Assembly: GCF_010501075.1 (NCBI RefSeq)
Contig: NZ_QVMN01000007.1
Coordinates: 1 to 64,000, forward strand
Length of the DNA: 64,000 nt
Reading direction: 5' to 3'
Origin: Dysgonomonas sp. 25
Lineage (GTDB): Bacteria; Bacteroidota; Bacteroidia; Bacteroidales; Dysgonomonadaceae
Made by a program: the position numbers and the translations under genes. Below the pieces are notes generated by a model. That model was given only the letters and a program-made list of their open reading frames with translations, did not search any database and was not told the DNA's origin. Shown in pieces: positions 37,132-48,667 of the stretch. Numbering within the stretch: the stretch's first letter is position 1; the number at the start of each line of letters is the position of its first letter.

Positions 37132-37704
37132 ATGAATATTATGAAGCATTCAGGACGACTCTGTTTACTACTGCTCTTGTTTATAATTGCTATTCAGATA
37201 AAAGCGCAGGAAAGCAATCCCGCAATAACTTTTATCCTTGAAGAGGTGAGAAATATCGACGAATACGAAAAGAGTGATATGGCAAGGCTTTCCCGTACTT
37301 TTGCAGATGGGGTTATATATAATAAAAAGAGATTGTCTAATTTTTTCTTGAAACGAAAGGCAATAGGCAGATTCTTTGAGAATTACCTTGTAAAAGATTC
37401 TTCCGTTATAAAATATATTAGGGGAGAGAGAATCTATCAAAAGGACGATGAGACGATAAGCGAGAATCGTATAAAAGCTTTTTACTTCAAAAGCGGAAAA
37501 TTACTATACTATCAAGAGTCTTTCTATAAAGAAGAAGATGGTTTATCTAAAGAAGCAACCTATGATATTAAGTATTATATCAGTGATGACACCTTATTAT
37601 GGCATGCAGTTGAAGGCAGTTTCGATAATGACATCTCGAAACATTTTAATAAAATACTTAAAGAAAAAGAAAAATTGATTGGAGATATTGAATCGGTAGA
37701 ATAA
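37132..37704 (+). CDS. Secreted protein of unknown function
   Basis: A 190-residue protein (or 187 from ATG 37141) with a signal peptide (LCLLLLLFIIAIQIKAQ). The mature part is rich in Lys, Glu, Tyr and Ile, with segments such as IRGERIYQKDDETISENRIKA... No family is recognised. The region is more AT-rich than its neighbours, which may mean recent acquisition or weak selection. It stands alone, divergent from the HAD gene and before the leu promoter. Confidence 0.75.
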   Translation: MNIMKHSGRLCLLLLLFIIAIQIKAQESNPAITFILEEVRNIDEYEKSDMARLSRTFADGVIYNKKRLSNFFLKRKAIGRFFENYLVKDSSVIKYIRGERIYQKDDETISENRIKAFYFKSGKLLYYQESFYKEEDGLSKEATYDIKYYISDDTLLWHAVEGSFDNDISKHFNKILKEKEKLIGDIESVE

Positions 37705-37743: not shown

Positions 37744-37774
37744 TTTGCTTTTTAGTAAAAAAGGAATAACTTTG
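37744..37774 (+). promoter_or_regulatory. Promoter of the leucine operon
   Basis: TTTG (37744-37747), 19 nt, TAACTTTG (37767-37774): exact fit to the Bacteroidota primary-sigma promoter. Predicted start near 37778, 25 nt before the leader peptide ATG. Confidence 0.8.
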
Positions 37775-37802
37775 TAAGCAATCTGAGCAAAAATAGATTT
37801 AT

Positions 37803-37877
37803 ATGCAACTATACACGAACCTCATTAGCCTCATTATTCTACTCTGGAGAAATTCGGGAGTGAGACTTGCTGTGTAG
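37803..37877 (+). CDS. Leucine-operon leader peptide
   Basis: A 24-codon frame, ATG to TAG, too short for normal gene finding. Eleven of 24 codons are branched-chain: Leu at 3, 7, 10, 13, 14 and 22; Ile at 8, 11, 12; Val at 20, 24. Seven of the eight codons 7-14 are Leu or Ile. The ORF sits between an excellent promoter and a terminator that precedes leuA. A ribosome stalled at codons 7-14 would leave 37858-37865 free to form the antiterminator; one reaching the stop at 37875 would cover it. This is the design of classical leu/ilv leader peptides. The frame itself is seen; its translation is inferred. Confidence 0.85.
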   Translation: MQLYTNLISLIILLWRNSGVRLAV

Positions 37878-37880
37878 TTG
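37806..37880 (+). other. Leader long-range pairing around the leader peptide
   Basis: CAACTA (37806-37811) and CAC (37814-37816) are complementary to TAGTTG (37875-37880) and GTG (37872-37874), with a 2-nt bulge. The pairing closes the start of the leader ORF against its stop codon; translation would open it. Confidence 0.5.
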
Positions 37881-37912
37881 CCAAGACAATATAATAAGAG
37901 CCTTTCTCACTC
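37858..37912 (+). other. Antiterminator pairing of the leucine attenuator
   Basis: GAGTGAGA (37858-37865, leader codons 19-21) is perfectly complementary to TCTCACTC (37905-37912). The second segment shares 37905-37908 with the 5' arm of the terminator, so the two structures exclude each other. Confidence 0.75.
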
Positions 37913-37937
37913 ATGGACAGAGAAAGGCTTTTTTTTT
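37899..37937 (+). terminator. Attenuator terminator before leuA
   Basis: AGCCTTTCTC (37899-37908) pairs perfectly with GAGAAAGGCT (37920-37929) over an 11-nt loop and is followed by a run of T to 37937. It lies between the leader peptide and leuA, in the direction of the operon. Confidence 0.9.
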
Positions 37938-37976
37938 AACAACCAATATAACAATACAAAAAAGGAGAATAGAAGC

Positions 37977-39467
37977 ATGGAAAAGTTATTCATTTTCGAC
38001 ACGACATTGAGAGACGGTGAACAGGTGCCCGGCTGCCAGTTGAATACAATAGAGAAAATAGAAGTAGCCAAAGCCCTCGAATCGCTCGGCGTGGATGTGA
38101 TCGAAGCCGGATTCCCTGCTTCCAGTCCGGGAGACTTCAACTCGGTAGTGGAAATATCCAAAGCCGTTACATGGCCTACCATCTGTGCGTTGACACGTGC
38201 CGTAGAGAAAGACATCGACACGGCTGCCGAAGCCTTGAAGTATGCCAAGAAAGGGCGTATCCATACAGGAATCGGGACTTCGGAATATCATATCAAATAT
38301 AAGTTCAATTCTAATCAGGATGAGATAATCGAGCGTGCCATAAAAGCCGTGAAATACGCTAAACGGTACGTCGAGGATGTCGAGTTTTATGCCGAAGATG
38401 CGGGACGTACCGATAATGAATATTTGGCTCGGGTAGTACAAGCAGTTGTCAATGCCGGAGCCACTGTTGTAAATATACCCGACACTACGGGCTATTGCCT
38501 TCCGACCGAATATGGAGCAAAAATCAAGTACCTGATTGATAACGTAGATATGAAGAATGCTATCTTGTCTACCCATTGTCACCAGGATTTAGGCATGGCT
38601 ACTGCCAATTCTATTATGGGTGTGTTGAATGGTGCCCGTCAGGTGGAAGTGACGATTAACGGAATCGGCGAACGTGCCGGAAATACTTCGCTCGAAGAAG
38701 TGGTAATGGCAATCAGAAGCCACAAGGAGCTGAACATCGAAACCAATATCAATACACAAAAGATATATCCTGTCAGTCGCATGATTTCGAGCCTGATGAA
38801 TATGCCTGTTCAGCCGAACAAGGCAATCGTAGGGCGCAATGCTTTCGCGCATTCATCGGGTATTCATCAGGACGGGGTACTGAAAAACCTCTCTACTTAT
38901 GAGATTATCGATCCGAAGGATGTCGGTATCGACGACAATGCTATTGTATTGACAGCCCGCAGCGGCCGTGCGGCATTGAAGAACAGGCTAAACTTGTTGA
39001 GTATCGAAGTAGATGATGACCAATTGTCGGAAATCTATCAGCGTTTCCTCGAATTGGCTGACCGCAAGAAAGATATTACCGATGAGGATGTCTTGATATT
39101 GGCAGGAAAGCAAACAGATAAGATGCACCGTATCAAGCTCGATTATCTGCAAGTGACGTCGGGCATCGGCATTCGTAATATAGCCAATGTGGGACTGGAC
39201 ATCGCCGGCGAGAAATTCGAATCATCGGCAACGGGCAACGGTCCTGTAGATGCAGCTATCAAGGCCGTGAAAAATATTGTTCGCCGTCAAACGACTATAC
39301 AGGAGTTTCTTATTCAGGCTATTAACAAAGGTAGCGATGATGTAGGTAAAGTCCACATGCAACTGGAGTACGAGGGGCAAACCTATTATGGATTCTCGGC
39401 CAATACGGATATTGTAGCGGCTTCGGTAGAAGCGTTTGTGAATGCCATCAATAAATTTGTGAAGTAA
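37977..39467 (+). CDS. leuA: 2-isopropylmalate synthase
   Basis: A 496-residue LeuA, first enzyme of leucine synthesis (acetyl-CoA plus 2-oxoisovalerate). The N terminus [16 protein letters not shown] carries the metal/substrate residues, [14 protein letters not shown] the metal His pair, and [19 protein letters not shown] follows. The C-terminal regulatory domain (from about residue 385) binds leucine in the family. The start is ATG 37977, with AAAGGAG 9 nt before it; a longer in-frame start at TTG 37878 would run through the attenuator terminator and is rejected. Regulated by the attenuator upstream and probably by leucine feedback. Confidence 0.97.
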
Positions 39468-39496: not shown

Positions 39497-40894
39497 ATGA
39501 AGACATTATTCGACAAAATCTGGGACGCACACGTAGTTTCGACGGTGGAAGACGGTCCTACGCAATTGTATATCGACAGGCATTTCTGTCACGAGGTAAC
39601 CAGTCCGCAAGCCTTCAACGGGTTACGCGCCAGAGGGCTGAAAGTTTTCCGTCCGGAAAAAACAACTATCACAGCCGACCACAATACGCCGACCATTAAT
39701 CAGGATCAGCCTGTGCAAGATCCCGTGTCTAAAAATCAATTAGATACGTTAGATAAGAATGCAAAAGAATTCAACTTACCATATTATTACCCGCTCGGGA
39801 ATATCAAGAATGGCGTGGTGCATATCATTGGGCCTGAAAATGGCTTTACCCAGCCGGGCATGACGATCGTCTGCGGCGACAGCCATACCTCTACACATGG
39901 GGCGTTCGGTTCGATTGCTTTCGGAATTGGTACAAGCGAAGTTGAAATGGTATTGGCTACCCAATGCGTATTCCAATCGAAGCCGAAAACAATGCGCATC
40001 ACTTTCAATGGCGAATTGGCGAAAGGCGTGACGGCGAAGGATGTTGCCCTTTACATGATTGCCAAGATGACAACAGGCGGTGCGACAGGCTATTTCGTTG
40101 AATATGCTGGCGAAGTTGTCCGCAATATGTCGATGGAAGAACGGATGACGCTTTGCAACCTGAGCATCGAAATGGGTGCTCGTGGCGGTATGATTGCGCC
40201 GGATGAAAAGACATTCGAGTACGTCAAAGGGCGTGAATTCGCTCCTAAAGGTGAGGCTTGGGATAAAGCATTGGCATATTGGAAAACACTTTTCACGGAT
40301 GAGGGGGCTAAATTCGACAAAGAATTGACTTTCGATGCTGCCGACATCAAACCGATGATTACATACGGTACCAATCCGGGTATGGGAATGGCTATCGACG
40401 ACACAATACCGACATTGGATGAAGTAGATGCTGCCGGAAGGATTTCGTTTGAGAAATCGCTGGATTATATGGGCTTTAAGCCGGGCGAGAAGGTCGAAGG
40501 CAAAACAATCGATTATGTTTTCTTGGGCAGTTGTACCAACGGACGCATCGAGGATTTTCGCGCGTTTACTAACTTTGTGAAAGGCAAGAAAAAAGCGGAT
40601 AACGTAGTTGCATGGCTCGTTCCGGGTAGCTGGATGGTAGAGAAGCAAATCCGCGAAGAAGGGCTATACGACATCCTCGTAGAAGCGGGATTCGAATTGC
40701 GCCAACCGGGATGTTCGGCTTGTCTGGCGATGAATGACGATAAAGTTCCTGCAGGAAAGTATGCTGTTTCCACTTCAAATCGTAACTTTGAAGGCCGTCA
40801 AGGTCCGGGCGCACGTACGATATTGGCGGGACCATTGGTGGCAGCGGCCGCAGCGGTTACTGGTAAGATTACAGATCCGCGCAAATTCAATTAG
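39497..40894 (+). CDS. leuC: 3-isopropylmalate dehydratase, large subunit
   Basis: A 465-residue aconitase-family subunit that, with LeuD, turns 2- into 3-isopropylmalate. The three [4Fe-4S] ligands are present: Cys346 in FLGSCTNGR, and Cys406 and Cys409 in [10 protein letters not shown]. The substrate segment [13 protein letters not shown] is at 126-138. It starts 29 nt after leuA. Its stop codon lies within the first copy of an 11-bp direct repeat that begins the inserted cassette before leuD. Confidence 0.97.
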
Positions 40895-41300
40895 CAAATT
40901 CGGAAATTAGCAAATGTGTAAATGAAAGAAACCGGGAATGTTATTGTTGATTTGTCTTTTAAGTTTGCTTTGGATATAATATCCTTTGCCGAAGTGCTTG
41001 AAGAAAGCCGAAAATTTATTGTAGCGAATCAATTGTTGAAATCCGGGACTTCGATTGGGGCTAATGTGAGAGAAGCTCAAAACGGAGAAAGCAAATCCGA
41101 CTTTATTCATAAGATGAAGATTGCAGCAAAAGAGGCAGACGAAACAGAATATTGGTTGTTGATTTGCGAAAGTTCGGAAAATTACCCTTTTCATCCACAA
41201 TTGCTTGAAGATATAAAAGTTATACAAAAGATTATAAACAAAATAATTGGAACATCAAAGTCCAAATAACAGAATTGGCTAATATGCTAATTAGCTAATT
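40889..41300. mobile_element. Cassette-like insertion between leuC and leuD
   Basis: On the left, AATTAGCAAAT is repeated at 40889-40899 and 40905-40915. On the right, GCTAAT, the complement of ATTAGC, occurs three times at 8-nt steps (41278, 41286, 41294). These inverted, AT-rich ends bracket one gene for a four-helix-bundle protein. There is no transposase, so the call of a small mobile or repeat-borne cassette is an inference from the flanks and from the known scattered spread of this protein family. Confidence 0.45.
40922..41269 (+). CDS. Four-helix-bundle protein (S23/23S-IVP family)
   Basis: A 115-residue all-helical protein. Family segments: FKFALDIISFAEVLEES, NQLLKSGTSIGANVREAQNGESKSDFIHKMKIAAKEADETEYWL (conserved SIGAN and EA motifs) and a C-terminal helix. 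The same family is found inside intervening sequences of 23S rRNA genes and scattered in Bacteroidota genomes; its activity is unknown. Here it splits leuC from leuD, yet points the same way, so it is probably co-transcribed. Confidence 0.92.
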   Translation: MKETGNVIVDLSFKFALDIISFAEVLEESRKFIVANQLLKSGTSIGANVREAQNGESKSDFIHKMKIAAKEADETEYWLLICESSENYPFHPQLLEDIKVIQKIINKIIGTSKSK

Positions 41301-41316
41301 TTCAAATTGATTAATT

Positions 41317-41907
41317 ATGGAAAAATTCGAAACATTGACCTCGACATACGTTCCGCTTCCTATCGAGAATGTGGACACAGACCAGATAATCCCTGCTCGC
41401 TTCCTGAAAGCGACTACCAAAGTAGGATTCGGTGATAACCTCTTTGCCGACTGGCGATACAATAAAGACGGCAGCCCGAAGAAAGATTTCGTATTGAACA
41501 ATCCCGTTTACAGCGGGCAAATCCTCGTGGCAGGTAAAAACTTCGGTAGCGGTTCGAGCCGCGAGCATGCTGCGTGGGCAGTAGCCGGATATGGCTTCCG
41601 TGCTGTCGTATCGAGCTTCTTTGCCGACATATTCCGCAACAATGCGCTGAACAACGGCCTGTTGCCTGTGGTAGTAACGCCGGTATTCCTTGCCGGAATC
41701 TTCGATAGCGTGAGCAAGAATCCGAAAGCGACGCTGACTATCGACCTCGAGAAACAACGCATAACCAACAACGAAACGGGCGAAGCCGAATCGTTCGAAA
41801 TTAATGCCTACAAAAAAGAATGCCTGCTGAAAGGCCTCGACGATATCGACTATCTCTTGTCTAAAAAAGATGTAATCGAAGAATACGAGAAAGAACATAC
41901 CCTTTAA
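41317..41907 (+). CDS. leuD: 3-isopropylmalate dehydratase, small subunit
   Basis: A 196-residue LeuD with the family motifs NVDTDQIIPARFL at 18-30 and NFGSGSSREHAAWA near 74-87, which completes the active site of LeuC. Standard length. It is parted from leuC by the four-helix-bundle cassette and followed after only 9 nt by the GH127 gene. Confidence 0.97.
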   Translation: MEKFETLTSTYVPLPIENVDTDQIIPARFLKATTKVGFGDNLFADWRYNKDGSPKKDFVLNNPVYSGQILVAGKNFGSGSSREHAAWAVAGYGFRAVVSSFFADIFRNNALNNGLLPVVVTPVFLAGIFDSVSKNPKATLTIDLEKQRITNNETGEAESFEINAYKKECLLKGLDDIDYLLSKKDVIEEYEKEHTL

Positions 41908-41916
41908 CCTAAAACC

Positions 41917-44406
41917 ATGAAAACCAAGAATCTCTTAACCCTATTAATAATCCTGTGCTGCACAATCACTTTGTCGGCACAAAAGAAAAACAGTAATGCG
42001 GAGAAAGGGCTGACGCCTGTGACCTTCGATAAAGTGACGTTGCAAGACCAATTCTGGAGTAACCGTATAAAGTTGCAGAAAGAAGTGCTTGTACCCGTTG
42101 CTTTGGAACGGACACACGGAGCCGTGGAAGATTTGCAGAAAACGGCAAATTACCTCAACGGTATCGAAGGACCACTTCCCGCTCCTCACCGTTTCAATAT
42201 TTCCGATTTGTTCAAGGTGCTCGAAGGAGCTGCCTATCTACTCAAAATGGAGCGCGATCCGGCATTGGAAAAACAGATAGACGATATTGCCGTTATCTTG
42301 GCGCAAGCGCAGGAAAAGGATGGGTATATCTATCCTGCACATACAACCGGAACGGCTAAAGACCACGAACATTGGGGCGGAGCCGGTATGGGCGACAAAA
42401 AATATTCGTGGGTGGTGCATAGCCACGAGCTATATAACATCGGACACTTATACGAAGCGGCAGCAGCTTATTATCAGGCTACCGGCAAACGCAATTTGTT
42501 GGATATTGCCGAGAAAAGCGCCCGTCACGTAAATAAAGTATTCTTTCACGGAGATCCGGAATATAATGACGGAAAGCCTGTCAATCAAGCACCGGGACAT
42601 CAGGAGATAGAGATGGCGCTCGTCAAAATGTACCGCGTGACGAACGATACATTGTATCTGAATATGGCAAAACGCTTCGTCGATATACGTGGAATCACCT
42701 ATGTGCCCGACGGCGAAGGAACTATGTCGCCCGAATATGCCCAGCAACATGCCCCTGTGAGAGACCAGAAAGAGGCTGTAGGACACTCGGTGCGCGCTAC
42801 ATACCTCTATTCGGGCATGGCAGATGTGGGCGCTTTGACCAATGACCCGACGCTGACGCCTGCCTTGCATCGGATTTGGGGCAATATTGTCGATACCCGC
42901 ATGCATATCACCGGAGGATTGGGTGCCATTCACGGAATCGAAGGTTTCGGACCTGAATACGAGTTGCCGAACAAAGATGCTTATGACGAGACATGTGCTG
43001 CCGTAGGCAATGTATTCTTCAACCATCGTATGTTCCTGCTCGAAAAGGACGGAAAATATATGGACGTAGCCGAAGTGGCTTTATTGAACAATGTGTTGGC
43101 GGGGGTAAATCTCGGAGGGGATAAGTTCTTCTACGTCAATCCGCTCGAATCGGATGGTATGATCGACCGTTCTTATTGGTTCGGAACGGCGTGCTGCCCG
43201 ACGAATCTGGCTCGTCTGATACCACAAATTTCGGGGCTCATGTATTCGTATACCGATAAGGATATTTATTGCGCTTTCTATACCAGCAGCGCTGTAGATA
43301 TACCGTTGAAAGGAGGAGTGGTCAAGCTGAATCAGCAAACAAACTACCCGTTCGACGAAAATATAAAACTGACCGTTAATCCGGCTAAAAAGAACCAGCA
43401 GTTTGCCGTTAAGATGCGTATCCCGACCTGGACGGGTTCGCAATTCGTTCCGGGCAAACTGTATCACTATGTCAACGATACCAATCGTCAATGGGAAGTG
43501 TATGTGAACGGCAAAAAAGTCGATAATGCTAAAGTCGAAAAAGGCTTTGTATCTATCGACCGTAAATGGAACAGCGGCGATGAAGTAGAACTTCGCTTGC
43601 CGATGCCTGTACGTTATACGCATGCTATCGAGCAGGTTAAGGCTGATAACGGACGCGTAGCAATCACACGCGGGCCATTGGTTTATTGTGCCGAAGGCGT
43701 TGATAACGAAGGTGAAGCAAACCGCTACTACATAGAGGATTTGTCGGCTAATCCGACGATAAGCGCTGAAACGCAAGGCTTATTAAAAGGCATAGATATT
43801 ATCAAAAACGTTCCGGCTAAATACTTGGATATAAAAGGACAATCGCATGCTTCTATGCTGACGCTTGTGCCTTATTATGCCTGGAACAACAGAGATGTGT
43901 CGACGATGAATATCTGGTTTGCAGAGAGCGAAAGTGTAGCGAAAGAAGGAATTACTATTCTTCCGGTGTTTTGTAAAGACATTCAGGCATCGCACACGCA
44001 TTCGGGAGATAATCTGCTTGCCATCATCAATGGCAAATATCCTAAACATTCATTCGATACCAGCATCGAGCGATGGACATCTTTCCCGCAAAGAGGAAAG
44101 GCACAATACATCGACTTCACTTTTGAGAAGCCGACCGATATCAGTGCGTTCTCGGTTTACTGGTACGACGATAAGGGCGGCGTGCAACTTCCCGTTTCGT
44201 GGAACTTGCAATACAAGGACAGCGAAAATGGCGAGTGGAAAGATTTCCCGCTATACACAACCGATTCGTATAGCATATTGAAAGACCAGTTCAATCTGGT
44301 ACATTCCGACGGGAAATCATTTGTGAAACAATATATACGCTTGAATATGCAGGCTAAGGACGACAGTGCGGTCGGCATATTACAAGTAAAATTCGACACT
44401 AAATAA
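41917..44406 (+). CDS. Secreted glycoside hydrolase family 127 protein
   Basis: An 829-residue exported protein: signal peptide (LLTLLIILCCTITLSA), a GH127 (DUF1680) alpha-toroid from about 40, and a C-terminal beta region (about 690-829) like a galactose-binding or F5/8-type domain. The zinc/catalytic set of GH127 beta-L-arabinofuranosidases is intact: Glu358 and Cys360 in DETCAA, and Cys426-Cys427 in GTACCPTN. It probably cuts L-arabinofuranose or related sugars from plant glycans in the periplasm. It lies 9 nt after leuD and 18 nt before the next synthase, inside the leucine operon, with no polysaccharide-utilisation genes near, which is odd. Confidence 0.9.
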   Translation: MKTKNLLTLLIILCCTITLSAQKKNSNAEKGLTPVTFDKVTLQDQFWSNRIKLQKEVLVPVALERTHGAVEDLQKTANYLNGIEGPLPAPHRFNISDLFKVLEGAAYLLKMERDPALEKQIDDIAVILAQAQEKDGYIYPAHTTGTAKDHEHWGGAGMGDKKYSWVVHSHELYNIGHLYEAAAAYYQATGKRNLLDIAEKSARHVNKVFFHGDPEYNDGKPVNQAPGHQEIEMALVKMYRVTNDTLYLNMAKRFVDIRGITYVPDGEGTMSPEYAQQHAPVRDQKEAVGHSVRATYLYSGMADVGALTNDPTLTPALHRIWGNIVDTRMHITGGLGAIHGIEGFGPEYELPNKDAYDETCAAVGNVFFNHRMFLLEKDGKYMDVAEVALLNNVLAGVNLGGDKFFYVNPLESDGMIDRSYWFGTACCPTNLARLIPQISGLMYSYTDKDIYCAFYTSSAVDIPLKGGVVKLNQQTNYPFDENIKLTVNPAKKNQQFAVKMRIPTWTGSQFVPGKLYHYVNDTNRQWEVYVNGKKVDNAKVEKGFVSIDRKWNSGDEVELRLPMPVRYTHAIEQVKADNGRVAITRGPLVYCAEGVDNEGEANRYYIEDLSANPTISAETQGLLKGIDIIKNVPAKYLDIKGQSHASMLTLVPYYAWNNRDVSTMNIWFAESESVAKEGITILPVFCKDIQASHTHSGDNLLAIINGKYPKHSFDTSIERWTSFPQRGKAQYIDFTFEKPTDISAFSVYWYDDKGGVQLPVSWNLQYKDSENGEWKDFPLYTTDSYSILKDQFNLVHSDGKSFVKQYIRLNMQAKDDSAVGILQVKFDTK

Positions 44407-44424: not shown

Positions 44425-45942
44425 ATGATAGAGATAATGGATACCACCCTGCGCGATGGGGAACAGACAGCCGGTGTTTCCTTTTCGGGACAGGAGAAGT
44501 TGAATATCGGCCGCCTTTTATTGAATAATCTCGGCGTAAACCGCATCGAGATTGCATCGGCACGTGTATCCGAAGGAGAATTCGAAACCGTCAAGCGGAT
44601 AACTGCTTCTGCTGTGGATTCGGGCAATATCGACAAATTAGAGATTCTCGGGTTTATTGATAACGGTGCTTCGCTGAAATGGATACAGGATGCGGGCTGC
44701 CGCAATATAAACCTGTTGAGTAAAGGCTCGTATCGCCATGTTACGGAGCAGTTGAGGAAAACCCCCGAGCAACATCTCGAAGATATAAAGCGGGAAGTCA
44801 TACTGGCCGAGAAGATGGGCATTCATGTCAATCTTTACCTCGAAGACTGGTCGAACGGAATTAAAGATTCCGAAGACTATGTTTTCTACCTGATGGATAA
44901 CCTGAAAGACTTACCTATCAAACGGTTTATGATTCCCGATACGTTGGGCATTCTCAATCCGCATACCACATGGCGCTATTGCCGTAAGATGATAGCCCGT
45001 TACCCGAAGTTGCATTTCGATTTTCATGCGCACAACGATTACGACCTTGCCGTGGCCAATACCATGGTTGCCGTGGAAGTCGGCGTGAAAGGAATACACG
45101 TGACAGTGAACGGTTTAGGCGAGCGTGCCGGAAATGCTTCTCTGGCCAGTGTTGTGGCTGTATTGCACGACCAGTTGAAAATCAAAACATCTATCAGGGA
45201 GAAATATATCAATAAGGTAAGCCGTATCGTAGAAGGATGTTCGGGGCGGTTTGTTGCCGAAAACCAGCCGGTTATCGGCGAAAATGTCTTTACGCAGACA
45301 GCCGGAATCCATGCTGATGGCGATAAGAAGAATAACCTGTACCATAATGATTTGCATCCCGAGCGTTTCGGACGTATTCGTTCGTATGCGCTTGGAAAGC
45401 TTTCGGGGAAAGCGAATATACATAAGAATATCGAAGCCTTAGGAATCGAACTGACAGAGGCGGAAATGCAGATTATCACGGATAAGGTAATCGAACTGGG
45501 CGACAAGAAAGAAATGATTACCCAGAGCGATTTGCCGTTCATCATCAACGATATACTGCATAACTCGAAAGATATTAAAATCAAGATACTCAACTTTGCT
45601 TTCAGCCTGACCAAAGGGCTTCGTCCGACAGCTACCGTCAAGGTGCGTGTGAATGGCGAGGAATACGAAGAAACGGCGGCAGGTAAGGGGCAGTATCATG
45701 CTTTTTCGAAAGCGATGTGGAAAATCTATTCCAAATTGGGGAAACCGAAGCCCGAACTTGTCAACTATGTGGTGTTTATTCCTCCGGGCGGGCGTACCGA
45801 CGCTTTGGTGCAGACAACGATTACCTGGAAGTTTAACAATAAAGAGTTCAAAACGATAGGCTTGGATGTCGATCAGACCGAAGCGGCTGTAAAGTCTACC
45901 GAAAAGATGTTGAATATAATTGAGGAAATGCAATGCGAATAA
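44425..45942 (+). CDS. Second LeuA-like synthase, possible (R)-citramalate synthase
   Basis: A 505-residue DRE-TIM synthase with regulatory domain: [16 protein letters not shown] at the start, HFDFHAHNDYDLAVANTM (metal His pair), NGLGERAGNASLASVV, and a LeuA-type dimerisation/regulatory domain from about 385. It differs clearly from LeuA upstream. In Bacteroidales a second such gene accompanies leuBCD. Candidate reactions are isopropylmalate synthesis or citramalate synthesis (pyruvate plus acetyl-CoA) feeding isoleucine; the second would reuse LeuBCD. Sequence alone does not decide. The last 10 bp overlap the DUF4419 gene. Confidence 0.88.
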   Translation: MIEIMDTTLRDGEQTAGVSFSGQEKLNIGRLLLNNLGVNRIEIASARVSEGEFETVKRITASAVDSGNIDKLEILGFIDNGASLKWIQDAGCRNINLLSKGSYRHVTEQLRKTPEQHLEDIKREVILAEKMGIHVNLYLEDWSNGIKDSEDYVFYLMDNLKDLPIKRFMIPDTLGILNPHTTWRYCRKMIARYPKLHFDFHAHNDYDLAVANTMVAVEVGVKGIHVTVNGLGERAGNASLASVVAVLHDQLKIKTSIREKYINKVSRIVEGCSGRFVAENQPVIGENVFTQTAGIHADGDKKNNLYHNDLHPERFGRIRSYALGKLSGKANIHKNIEALGIELTEAEMQIITDKVIELGDKKEMITQSDLPFIINDILHNSKDIKIKILNFAFSLTKGLRPTATVKVRVNGEEYEETAAGKGQYHAFSKAMWKIYSKLGKPKPELVNYVVFIPPGGRTDALVQTTITWKFNNKEFKTIGLDVDQTEAAVKSTEKMLNIIEEMQCE

Positions 45943-47579
45943 CTGGCTTATTTTTAGGGCTTTTCATTAGCCTATGTGCTTATGCAGGTGTGAATGATAC
46001 CATTCAACCGCCACCGCAAGGGGTGACCTTTGCTGTGGATACCGTTGTACCGGCGGAAAGTTATTTGCCCGAAATGCCTATCGACATAGCATTGTACCGT
46101 CATACTGAAATGCCTGTACTGACCTTTCCCGACGAACATCGGGATATGGCGGTGGTGGGTACTTATAAGAATTCGCTGATGACGGCTATCAACAGGGCAT
46201 ACAGTGACCATCGCCCGCTGATATTGTCGCCCGATGTTATCTGGTTGGCTATTTGTCAGGGAGTTTCGATACATATAACCGAAAATATAAATACTTTGGA
46301 AGACAAACTCTTTGTGAAAGATAAGCCCAAAGTACTGAATGTTTACAGGCCTATATTGAGGGATAACAGCGCCGATTGGCAATTTATTATCGACCGTTTG
46401 TCTGCCGAAACCCGCAAATACACGAAGAAAGATTTCCATTCGTATGTTGTGGGCGATTTCTCTACAACTACGCCTGCGAGCCAGATGGCCTACAAAATAA
46501 CGTTATTGGAGGCATATAAGAAAGTCTTTGCTTATCAGGTGACAACACTTTGTGGCATTCCTTCGGTTACTTTGACCGGGACACGCGAAGATTGGGAAGT
46601 AATCTATAACAAGCTCGACTATCTGTCCGAAATCGGTCTCGAAGAATGGGCCGATTGTCTGCGTCCTGTTATACAGGAGTTTATCGATGCTTATGATGGA
46701 AAAGTGAATACACAATTCTGGCAAAGTATCTATAAAGACCGTTTCGAGTATGATTCGAATTATTTATCGGGGTGGTGTATTAAGTTCTTTCCCTATTTGA
46801 AAAAATGCCGTGATTGTAATGGATATATTCCGAACAGGTTTCTGGAGGGAGATGCTTATTTAATATCGAGAATAAGGACTGAAAATATCCCTGACGGCAA
46901 TGCCCGTATCGATGTTACAATCTGCGATTACACTGGAACCCGTTTAGGAATGCGCTATGTCTTTGGTGGATTTATGGGCTTGAAGCAATATAACAACAAG
47001 GCGATAGAGCCGTTTATCTCGTGGGTTATATGCAGAGAGGAGAAAAAAGGAAAAGGCAAAAAGGAAGAAGATATGACTTCGAATGGAGATGAAGCCCGCC
47101 CGGTACGGATGACGCGTGCAAGTATGTTTAGTCCTAATCCGAGGGATAGTTCTTCTAATTGGGACGATTGGATGTCTTGGAGTCCGTCTGTCGAACAGCC
47201 TGTTTATGATAAAGGACGCTTCGAAACGCAAGAGGAAAGCTTGAATTATATCAAAGATTACCTCGAAACAGCTATCAGGAAAAATACGGCATTCAAGGAA
47301 GAATTGCAAAAGGAAATAGAGGTAGAATTTGTGATTCGCACTACCGGAAAGATGGACGCCATAGGCATAAGGCATAACAATGTATCGAAGGCGCTTCGTG
47401 ACTTTATCAAAAAGAAACTGAAAGAGCTCCCCGGCGAATGGACGGTTGGGGTAGAGAGTTATAAGAGATACCTGAATCGCGGTTCCCACATCGTAACAAT
47501 AGAAGGGATGAAAGACTATAATATTCAGGTGAATACCGCTATAAACATCACGATATTCGAACAGAAGAAAACAGATTAA
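45933..47579 (+). CDS. Secreted DUF4419 protein
   Basis: A 548-residue protein with a signal peptide (MRITGLFLGLFISLCAYA). The DUF4419 core follows: LILSPDVIWLAICQGVSIHI near 95-114, GIPSVTLTGTREDWEVIYNKLDYL near 208-231 and SGWCIKFFPYL near 277. The C-terminal 150 residues add a Lys/Glu-rich stretch and a segment with TGKMDAIGIRHNNVSKALRDF. The activity of DUF4419 is unknown. It overlaps the upstream synthase by 10 bp and lies 20 nt before leuB, so it is part of the operon transcript although a link with leucine synthesis is not obvious. Confidence 0.9.
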   Translation: MRITGLFLGLFISLCAYAGVNDTIQPPPQGVTFAVDTVVPAESYLPEMPIDIALYRHTEMPVLTFPDEHRDMAVVGTYKNSLMTAINRAYSDHRPLILSPDVIWLAICQGVSIHITENINTLEDKLFVKDKPKVLNVYRPILRDNSADWQFIIDRLSAETRKYTKKDFHSYVVGDFSTTTPASQMAYKITLLEAYKKVFAYQVTTLCGIPSVTLTGTREDWEVIYNKLDYLSEIGLEEWADCLRPVIQEFIDAYDGKVNTQFWQSIYKDRFEYDSNYLSGWCIKFFPYLKKCRDCNGYIPNRFLEGDAYLISRIRTENIPDGNARIDVTICDYTGTRLGMRYVFGGFMGLKQYNNKAIEPFISWVICREEKKGKGKKEEDMTSNGDEARPVRMTRASMFSPNPRDSSSNWDDWMSWSPSVEQPVYDKGRFETQEESLNYIKDYLETAIRKNTAFKEELQKEIEVEFVIRTTGKMDAIGIRHNNVSKALRDFIKKKLKELPGEWTVGVESYKRYLNRGSHIVTIEGMKDYNIQVNTAINITIFEQKKTD

Positions 47580-47599: not shown

Positions 47600-48667
47600 A
47601 TGAAACTGAACATTGCCGTACTTCCGGGTGACGGAATAGGACCCGAAATCGTAGCACAGGCGCTACGCGTAACAGAAGCTGTATGTGAGAAATTCGGACA
47701 CGCGCTCGAATACAAATATGGAATTGTCGGTGCATCGGCCATCGACAAGGTAGGGAATCCTTATCCCGACGAAACGCACGAACTTTGTATGGCTTCGGAT
47801 GCCGTTTTGTTCGGCGCGATAGGCGATCCTAAGTTCGATAATAATCCGGCTGCCAAAGTCCGCCCCGAGCAGGGTTTGCTGGCTATGCGCAAGAAACTGG
47901 GACTGTATGCCAATCTGCGTCCGGTAGCTACTTTTCCGTCGTTGATACACAAATCACCTCTCCGTGCCGATTTGGTCGAAGGAGCAGACTTTATGTGTGT
48001 GCGCGAGCTGACGGGAGGATTGTATTTCGGTCGTCCGCAAGGTCGTAGCGAAGATGGCGATACGGCATACGATACGTGCGTCTATACGCGCGAGGAAGTG
48101 GAGCGTATCCTGCACCTTTCGTACAAATATGCCCGCATGCGCCGCAAAAAACTGACGGTAGTAGACAAAGCCAATGTGCTGTGCACATCGCGCTTGTGGC
48201 GCCAGGTAGCGCAGGAGATAGAAACACAGTATCCCGATGTGGAAACCGAATATATGTTTGTTGATAATGCGGCGATGCAGATTATTCAGTGGCCTAAGCG
48301 TTTCGATGTATTGGTGACCGAAAACCTGTTCGGTGACATCCTGACGGACGAAGCTTCTGTTATTACAGGTTCGCTGGGGATGCTTCCATCCGCTTCCATC
48401 GGTATTCATACATCGGTATTCGAGCCGATTCACGGTTCGTATCCACAGGCGGCAGGCAAAAATATAGCCAATCCGCTGGCTACTATCCTTTCGGCAGCTA
48501 TGATGTTCGAATATGCTTTCGAATTGAAGGAAGAAGGCGCGCTTATCCGCCGGGCAGTCGATGCATCGATGGATGCCAAGATTGTAACCGAAGACATTGC
48601 ATCGGGTGGCAAAGCTTATTCGACAAGCGATGTGGGCGACTGGATTGTAAATTATATAAAAGGCTAA
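47600..48667 (+). CDS. leuB: 3-isopropylmalate dehydrogenase
   Basis: A 355-residue LeuB, NAD-dependent oxidative decarboxylase, third step of leucine synthesis. Motifs: [17 protein letters not shown] at 6-22, [16 protein letters not shown] (substrate Arg), [25 protein letters not shown] (Mg Asp pair) and [19 protein letters not shown]. Normal length. It is the last gene of the operon; only a weak 4-bp hairpin with ATTTT follows the stop. Confidence 0.97.

What the first reader, a model, noticed from the sequence alone, without database searches (positions are those of the whole stretch)
37744..37976. Complete ribosome-mediated attenuator for leucine synthesis in a Bacteroidota operon
Every part of a classical attenuator is visible. 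There is a perfect promoter, then a 24-codon leader peptide with 11 branched-chain codons (seven of eight at codons 7-14). An antiterminator (37858-37865 with 37905-37912, 8 perfect bp) shares bases with a 10-bp terminator stem with T run just before leuA. The geometry fits: a ribosome stalled at codon 14 ends about 2 nt before the antiterminator arm, while one at the stop codon covers it. Such leaders are well known in Proteobacteria, and the Bacteroid-trp motif shows attenuation exists in Bacteroidales. I do not know of a described leucine leader peptide of this form in this group.
Basis: partly seen in the sequence, partly recalled or inferred. Interest (0 to 1): 0.75.

Follow-up and report, generated by a model that had tools for sequence, protein, structure and literature searches.

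The report
Leucine-isoleucine attenuator before leuA
In front of its leucine genes this bacterium carries an RNA switch in which a tiny leucine- and isoleucine-rich test peptide would decide whether the genes are read; many relatives carry the same switch, so it looks real, of a well-known type, and part of a wider habit in this group of bacteria.

Summary
Upstream of leuA in a Dysgonomonas lie a Bacteroidota-type promoter, a 24-codon leader ORF with seven Leu/Ile in codons 7-14, a protector hairpin, an 8-bp antiterminator and a 13-bp terminator with nine T. In 54 aligned sequences both mutually exclusive helices covary. A model of the element hits just upstream of leuA in 65 of 80 Bacteroidota loci (53 of these built it). 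65 of 66 leaders have five or more Leu/Ile in eight codons (3.5% of shuffles). The run ends a median 3 nt before a stalled ribosome would cover the antiterminator arm; at the stop codon the arm is covered in 54 of 54. A citramalate-synthase-like gene in the operon may explain the Ile codons. The same genome has fitting leaders before ilvD, trpB, hisG and a prephenate dehydratase gene. No Rfam family matches. Corrections: early codons of the run, not codon 14, are the better stall sites in folding; the full leader always favours the terminator, so the switch must be kinetic. There are no expression data. A new member of a known kind; the breadth is more interesting.

The parts
37744..37774 (+). 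promoter: TTTG (37744-37747), 19 nt, TAACTTTG (37767-37774)
   Evidence: the consensus TTTG-N19-TAnnTTTG is recalled; TAnnTTTG lies within 100 nt upstream of the leader ATG in 52 of 65 leaders (one of the 66 had too little upstream DNA) against 188 of 3300 control windows; TTTG at spacing 19 in 29
37803..37877 (+). leader peptide ORF, MQLYTNLISLIILLWRNSGVRLAV*, control codons 7-14
   Evidence: 65 of 66 leaders with five or more Leu/Ile in 8 codons
37805..37881 (+). protector (1:2) hairpin, arms 37805-37826 and 37859-37881
   Evidence: window z -3.5; 49 of 54 sequences z below -1; covariation in 17 Bacteroides-type sequences
37858..37865 (+). antiterminator arm 2 (GAGTGAGA)
37905..37912 (+). 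antiterminator arm 3 (TCTCACTC), shared with the terminator
37896..37937 (+). intrinsic terminator (3:4), stem 37896-37908 with 37920-37932, T run 37929-37937
37977..39467 (+). leuA, 2-isopropylmalate synthase
   Evidence: NCBIfam TIGR00973, 653.7 bits, over its cut-off
39497..40894 (+). leuC
   Evidence: TIGR00170 over its cut-off
41317..41907 (+). leuD
   Evidence: TIGR00171 over its cut-off
44425..45942 (+). citramalate-synthase-like gene (best match the Leptospira CimA model, below its cut-off)
   Evidence: NF042433 638.3 bits against a cut-off of 950; neighbour of leuA in 10 of 10 relatives searched
47600..48667 (+). leuB
   Evidence: TIGR00169 over its cut-off

Best explanation
A ribosome-mediated transcription attenuator sets expression of the operon leuA-leuC-leuD-(cimA-like)-leuB by the supply of charged Leu- and Ile-tRNA. 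RNA polymerase starts near 37781 and a ribosome starts at 37803. With enough Leu and Ile the ribosome runs to the stop codon, covers arm 2, and arm 3 pairs with arm 4: transcription ends before leuA. If Leu or Ile is short the ribosome halts in the Leu/Ile run (its early codons being the most effective sites in folding), breaks the protector hairpin, leaves arm 2 free, and arm 2 pairs with arm 3 as it emerges: no terminator, so leuA is read. Without translation the protector and terminator form together and transcription stops. Shown: the parts, their conservation, covariation and geometry. Inferred: transcription start, translation, stalling, termination, the extent of the operon and the amino acids sensed.
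For: Parts. Covariation on 54 sequences: terminator 91.2% of cells paired, 9 of 14 pairs with both sides changed; antiterminator 85.1%, 6 of 10 pairs, 41 cells with both sides changed against 17.6 in shuffles; the percentage paired falls to 34-67% when either is slid by 1-3 columns. Protector: mean z -2.35, 49 of 54 below -1. Leader codons. Geometry in 54: run ends a median 3 nt from arm 2 (50 of 54 at 0 or more), arm 2 fully covered at the stop in 54 of 54. Distribution: 65 of 80 leuA loci; a hit in 59 of 61 family genomes, place relative to leuA not checked. The same model finds leaders whose codons fit the next gene: 54 of the 55 best-scoring hits that came with loci (ten genes checked). 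Same genome: ilvD, trpB, hisG and PDT leaders.
Against: No RNA or reporter data. In equilibrium folding the full leader forms the terminator in all five states tried (P 1.0; 3:4 -16.8, 2:3 -7.9 kcal/mol), and a stall at codon 14 leaves the protector intact, so the switch relies on order and speed of folding. Whole-peptide pN/pS is 0.5 to 1.1 in five groups: little sign of protein-level selection (expected for a leader peptide, but no support either). For the antiterminator, pairs with both sides changed were reached by 59 of 500 shuffles and equalled by a slide of +1, and 'further pair types' by 426 of 500. 15 of 80 leuA loci gave no hit, though two of them have too little upstream DNA.
Confidence: 0.93

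Rival explanations
1. The hairpin is only the terminator of the upstream gene (ORF 37132-37704) and the small ORF is accidental; leuA has another promoter.
For: The upstream ORF is on the same strand and ends about 190 nt before the terminator stem.
Against: A promoter motif sits between the two and is conserved; the leader ORF, its codons and the antiterminator are conserved with leuA; the same architecture sits before other amino-acid genes with other codons.
Confidence: 0.02
2. The leader RNA senses amino acids directly or through a protein or tRNA (riboswitch, T-box, RNA-binding protein), and the ORF is secondary.
For: The leader RNA is strongly structured.
Against: No Rfam match at gathering score in this region of the window, in 20 relatives, in the other own-genome leader regions or in 15 further loci; the codons change with the operon: Trp before trpE, His before hisG, Thr/Ile before thrA.
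Confidence: 0.03
3. The leader peptide is a small protein with its own function, or the terminated leader RNA acts in trans as an sRNA.
For: The terminated leader would be a structured RNA of about 155 nt (inference).
Against: Whole-peptide pN/pS is 0.81 to 1.12 in four of five groups and 0.53 in the fifth; composition more than sequence is kept.
Confidence: 0.02

Closest known systems
Escherichia coli leu operon attenuator (leuL; Rfam RF00512 Leu_leader)
   Same: Leader ORF with control codons, 1:2, 2:3 and 3:4 helices, next to leuA (recalled).
   Different: No Rfam match in the window; one relative scores 17.2 against a gathering score of 50. Ile codons as frequent as Leu (composition), whereas the E. 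coli leader has a run of Leu (recalled).
Candidate attenuators of Vitreschak et al. 2004 (FEMS Microbiol Lett 234:357)
   Same: Comparative prediction of leader-peptide attenuators of amino-acid operons; as I recall, its abstract names Bacteroidetes/Chlorobi among the groups.
   Different: Paper not held, so neither that nor a leuA leader of this group could be checked. [quoted passage not shown]
Bacteroid-trp motif (RF01692) and Termite-leu motif (RF01730), Weinberg et al. 2010, PMC2864571
   Same: Structured RNA motifs listed for Bacteroidetes (cis-regulatory 'y') and for termite hind gut DNA (cis-regulatory '?'); by name linked to trp and leu (table passages).
   Different: Neither appears among matches in the window, in 20 leuA relatives, in one relative scanned permissively or in the trp leaders scanned.
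Leucine-rich attenuator peptide of Staphylococcus aureus (PMC5794164; search listing with title and start of abstract only)
   Same: Leucine-rich attenuator peptide in branched-chain synthesis.
   Different: Firmicutes; no sequence comparison made.
Leader-peptide clues in Flavobacterium psychrophilum (PMC9723704) and Bacteroides thetaiotaomicron (PMC7366714) transcriptomes; passages read
   Same: Both mention leader-peptide attenuation-like 5' regions, the first upstream of amino-acid operons.
   Different: The passages found name no leucine leader; supplements could not be read.

Membership tests
ribosome-mediated (leader-peptide) transcription attenuator | promoter upstream of a short ORF in the leader | tested here: met
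   (motif only; start site not mapped)
ribosome-mediated (leader-peptide) transcription attenuator | run of control codons matching the operon's product | tested here: met
   65 of 66 leaders; both Ile and Leu in 65 of 66 runs, only Leu in one; operon content
ribosome-mediated (leader-peptide) transcription attenuator | intrinsic terminator just before the first gene | tested here: met
   (by structure; termination itself not measured)
ribosome-mediated (leader-peptide) transcription attenuator | mutually exclusive antiterminator sharing the terminator arm, with covariation | tested here: met
   (41 cells with both sides changed against 17.6; two of five measures not beyond shuffles)
ribosome-mediated (leader-peptide) transcription attenuator | protector hairpin (1:2) | tested here: met
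ribosome-mediated (leader-peptide) transcription attenuator | ribosome position decides which helix can form | tested here: inconclusive
   geometry fits 50 and 54 of 54; folding supports stalls at codons 7 and 10 but not 14, and is equilibrium only; the footprint of A-site +12 is recalled from E. coli
ribosome-mediated (leader-peptide) transcription attenuator | read-through rises when the amino acid is short | not testable with these tools
   needs RNA measurements
Rfam RF00512 Leu_leader | match at gathering score | tested here: not met
   17.2 against 50 in L014
Rfam RF01730 Termite-leu | match at gathering score | tested here: not met
   not listed even at E 10
Rfam RF01692 Bacteroid-trp | match at gathering score | tested here: not met
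T-box or riboswitch | match to any Rfam family of that kind | tested here: not met

The most novel reading that the evidence does not exclude
Ribosome-mediated attenuation is a standing control of amino-acid synthesis across Bacteroidota: one genome has at least five leaders (leu, ilv, trp, his, phe); the leu leader senses Leu and Ile together because LeuCDB would also serve a citramalate route to Ile; some genomes place two complete leader-peptide attenuators in series before ilv genes; and all this implies that transcription and translation are closely coupled in the phylum.
Probability: 0.55. Interest if true: 0.65.

Novelty: new member of a known kind. Interest (0 to 1): 0.5.

Why it matters
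As far as I know, control of amino-acid synthesis in Bacteroidota is thinly mapped, and no Rfam family matched the leaders scanned here. A leader that needs a ribosome close behind RNA polymerase makes transcription-translation coupling in this phylum directly testable. Joint Leu/Ile sensing fits an operon that holds both leuA and a citramalate-synthase-like gene and predicts how Ile is made and controlled there. The model R1 gives a way to annotate such leaders.

Tried and rejected
Rfam: in the window only the 16S rRNA reached a gathering score; nothing did in 20 relatives, the own-genome ilv/trp/his/phe regions or 15 further loci; permissive scans of the window leader and of L014 gave only matches far below their gathering scores. 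Termite-leu was seriously considered as the same thing in relatives whose MAG names I take from recall to be from termite guts (no call shows their source); it was set aside because it is absent, but its alignment was not seen. Codon-level purifying selection was tried and was weak. thrA of the own genome has no such leader in the stretch read. Papers: ten searches showed no described leucine leader of this group; the library is open-licence only and lacks Vitreschak 2004, so this is no proof of absence. Passages of PMC4833913, PMC2965389 and PMC6429828 were seen and added little beyond the PMC2965389 remark quoted under closest known.

Full report
The sequence. The window belongs to a Dysgonomonas: LeuA is 90-91% identical to four named Dysgonomonas loci, and a genome listed as same genus (G264) has a contig of the same length, 179349, as the Dysgonomonas sp. 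PF1-14 contig of L005. Folding of 37780-37940 gives -46.1 kcal/mol, z -4.5, with two main domains: a protector hairpin (arms 37805-37826 and 37859-37881) that takes up most of arm 2, and the terminator. The antiterminator stretch folded alone is not beyond shuffles (z -1.29, 18 of 200 as good).

The operon. NCBIfam names leuA, leuC, leuD and leuB above their cut-offs; the 505-residue ORF at 44425 matches best the Leptospira citramalate synthase CimA model (638.3 bits) but below its cut-off of 950, so 'citramalate-synthase-like' is the right strength. In 10 of 10 named relatives searched the same protein lies on the leuA strand within about 5 kb downstream. LeuC, LeuD and LeuB can act on both the isopropylmalate and the citramalate series (recalled), so one operon could serve Leu and Ile. 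That these genes are one transcript is inferred.

Relatives. Both exclusive helices covary. Terminator: 14 pairs, 91.2% of cells paired (shuffles 87.5), 9 pairs changed on both sides (shuffles 4.0), 35 such cells (11.0). Antiterminator: 10 pairs, 85.1% (78.0), 41 cells changed on both sides (17.6), covariation score 0.271 (0.172), each beyond all 500 shuffles; but 6 pairs with both sides changed (4.7) were reached by 59 of 500 shuffles and equalled by a slide of +1, and further pair types were not above shuffles (426 of 500). Sliding either helix by 1-3 columns drops pairing to 34-67%. The protector region has mean z -2.35 and is below -1 in 49 of 54 (60 shuffles each); in 17 Bacteroides-type sequences its 33 pairs include 16 with changes on both sides (shuffles 9.2, 0 of 500), although the structure came from one of those sequences.

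The model R1 hits just upstream of leuA in 65 of 80 loci, of which 53 built the model and 12 did not. The 15 without a hit are L016 and L033 (67 and 148 nt of upstream DNA only; L016 still shows what looks like the end of such a terminator), and L027, L037, L040, L043, L049, L051, L052, L053, L059, L064, L067, L071 and L074. In L037 and L053 leuA follows closely on an ORF that I read as ilvC from its letters, not searched. In whole genomes at E 0.01 or better R1 hits 59 of 61 in the family, 115 of 295 in the order and 68 of 392 in the phylum. These counts include other operons and some opposite-strand or partial matches, and I did not check which genomes have leuA.

The peptide. With the same ORF-picking rule applied to real and shuffled sequence, 65 of 66 leaders (65 loci and the window) have five or more Leu/Ile in eight codons and 57 of 66 six or more; of 6600 shuffles 3.5% and 0.5% do. 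65 of 66 runs hold both Leu and Ile, one only Leu. Leu is written with all six codons. Over the whole peptide pN/pS is 0.53, 1.12, 0.95, 1.11 and 0.81 in five groups, so the kind of codon is kept rather than the peptide.

Geometry. Taking the ribosome's front edge as 12 nt past the first base of the A-site codon (recalled from E. coli), the last Leu/Ile codon of the run leaves a median of 3 nt (quartiles 2 to 4.25) before arm 2; 50 of 54 leave 0 or more, and 4 overlap it. At the stop codon the edge is past arm 2 in 54 of 54. So the run reaches about as close as it can without hiding arm 2. The promoter motif TAnnTTTG precedes 52 of 65 leaders against 188 of 3300 control windows.

Energetics. 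With RNA polymerase just past arm 3, masking a ribosome at codon 7 gives the antiterminator P 0.98, at codon 10 P 0.83, at codon 14 P 0.0, because the outer protector helix (codons 2-6 with the region after arm 2) can still form around the ribosome in this calculation; without a ribosome P 0.0; at the stop 0.0. With the full leader the terminator has P 1.0 in each of the five states (one of the eleven protector pairs listed there is not part of the predicted helix, so 0.91 is the ceiling of that column). The switch must therefore be kinetic, and stalls early in the run are the effective ones in this model, which does not treat the bulk of a ribosome.

Breadth. R1 searches gave loci for their best-scoring hits only. 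Of the 55 such hits at E 0.01 or better (L081, L082, L085-L137), 54 have a leader ORF whose codons suit the next gene: 26 leuA, 7 ilvD, 6 ilvE, 3 ilvH-like, 3 ilvA (Ile), 6 thrA-like (Thr and Ile) and 3 trpE (Trp); one, L136, has none. Weaker hits were not read. Ten of the non-leuA genes were scanned: nine were named as stated (the two thrA-like ones as aspartate kinase, the fuller bifunctional model staying below its cut-off on these cut-short proteins), and the ilvH-like L121 had no match at 1e-50. The rest, leuA included, were named by reading the first residues. In these lists the ORF was picked by eye or by its target residues, so the counts are illustrative. In the own genome R1 finds a second place, ilvD with MTNCILHVLVLDILVLWQNK, followed by ilvB-like, ilvH-like and ilvC-like genes. 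Reading upstream of other pathways gave MQFQLVNIYWWWRLRNKKS before trpB, MNKRLHNHHKLITTPR before hisG and MLGNSYTYFGFYFYFFRK before a prephenate dehydratase gene; their terminators were read by eye. thrA has none in the stretch read.

What is known. Leader-peptide attenuation is classical, and hints of it in Bacteroidota are in print: from recall, Vitreschak 2004 lists Bacteroidetes/Chlorobi (not held), while a passage of PMC2965389 says none had been shown outside Proteobacteria and Actinobacteria; the F. psychrophilum transcriptome paper speaks of strong clues upstream of amino-acid operons (passage); the B. thetaiotaomicron paper of sORFs reminiscent of leader peptides (passage). Bacteroid-trp and Termite-leu are listed in Weinberg 2010 (table passages), and their Rfam models do not match here. 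Ten searches of an open-licence library showed no description of this leucine leader (listed under tried and rejected).

Verdict. A real, conserved, very probably ribosome-mediated attenuator of the leu operon; a new member of a known kind. The surprise lies in the breadth, the joint Leu/Ile reading and the tandem arrangements elsewhere.

Noticed in passing
L121 (G516), L132 (G496), L116 (G549), L167 (G190), L168 (G052), L169 (G096), L170 (G144): Two complete leader-peptide attenuators in series, each with its own Ile/Val/Leu leader and terminator (read by eye), before ilvH-like, ilvE-like or ilvD-like genes; 7 of 7 adjacent same-strand pairs read showed this; an eighth pair in the listed rows (G255) was not read.
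   Followed up: partly
own genome: L082/L146 (ilvD), L143 (trpB), L144 (hisG), L145 (prephenate dehydratase): Four further leaders with fitting codons (Leu/Val/Ile, Trp, His, Phe/Tyr) and terminators in the same genome.
   Followed up: partly
window 41917-44406: A GH127 beta-L-arabinofuranosidase-like gene sits between leuD and the citramalate-synthase-like gene.
   Followed up: no
window 40922-41269: A four-helix-bundle (23S rRNA intervening sequence) protein gene lies between leuC and leuD.
   Followed up: no
window 45933-47579: A DUF4419 protein gene lies between the citramalate-synthase-like gene and leuB.
   Followed up: no
L037 and L053: leuA follows closely on an ORF that reads like ilvC and has no leader, as if it had moved into an ilv operon (not searched).
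   Followed up: no
L014, L019, L029, L050, L054 against L079, L026, L062 and others: The leader stop codon ends 7 nt before the end of arm 2 in some relatives, 2 nt before it in many, and 11 nt past it in Bacteroides-type leaders: different solutions of the same geometry.
   Followed up: partly
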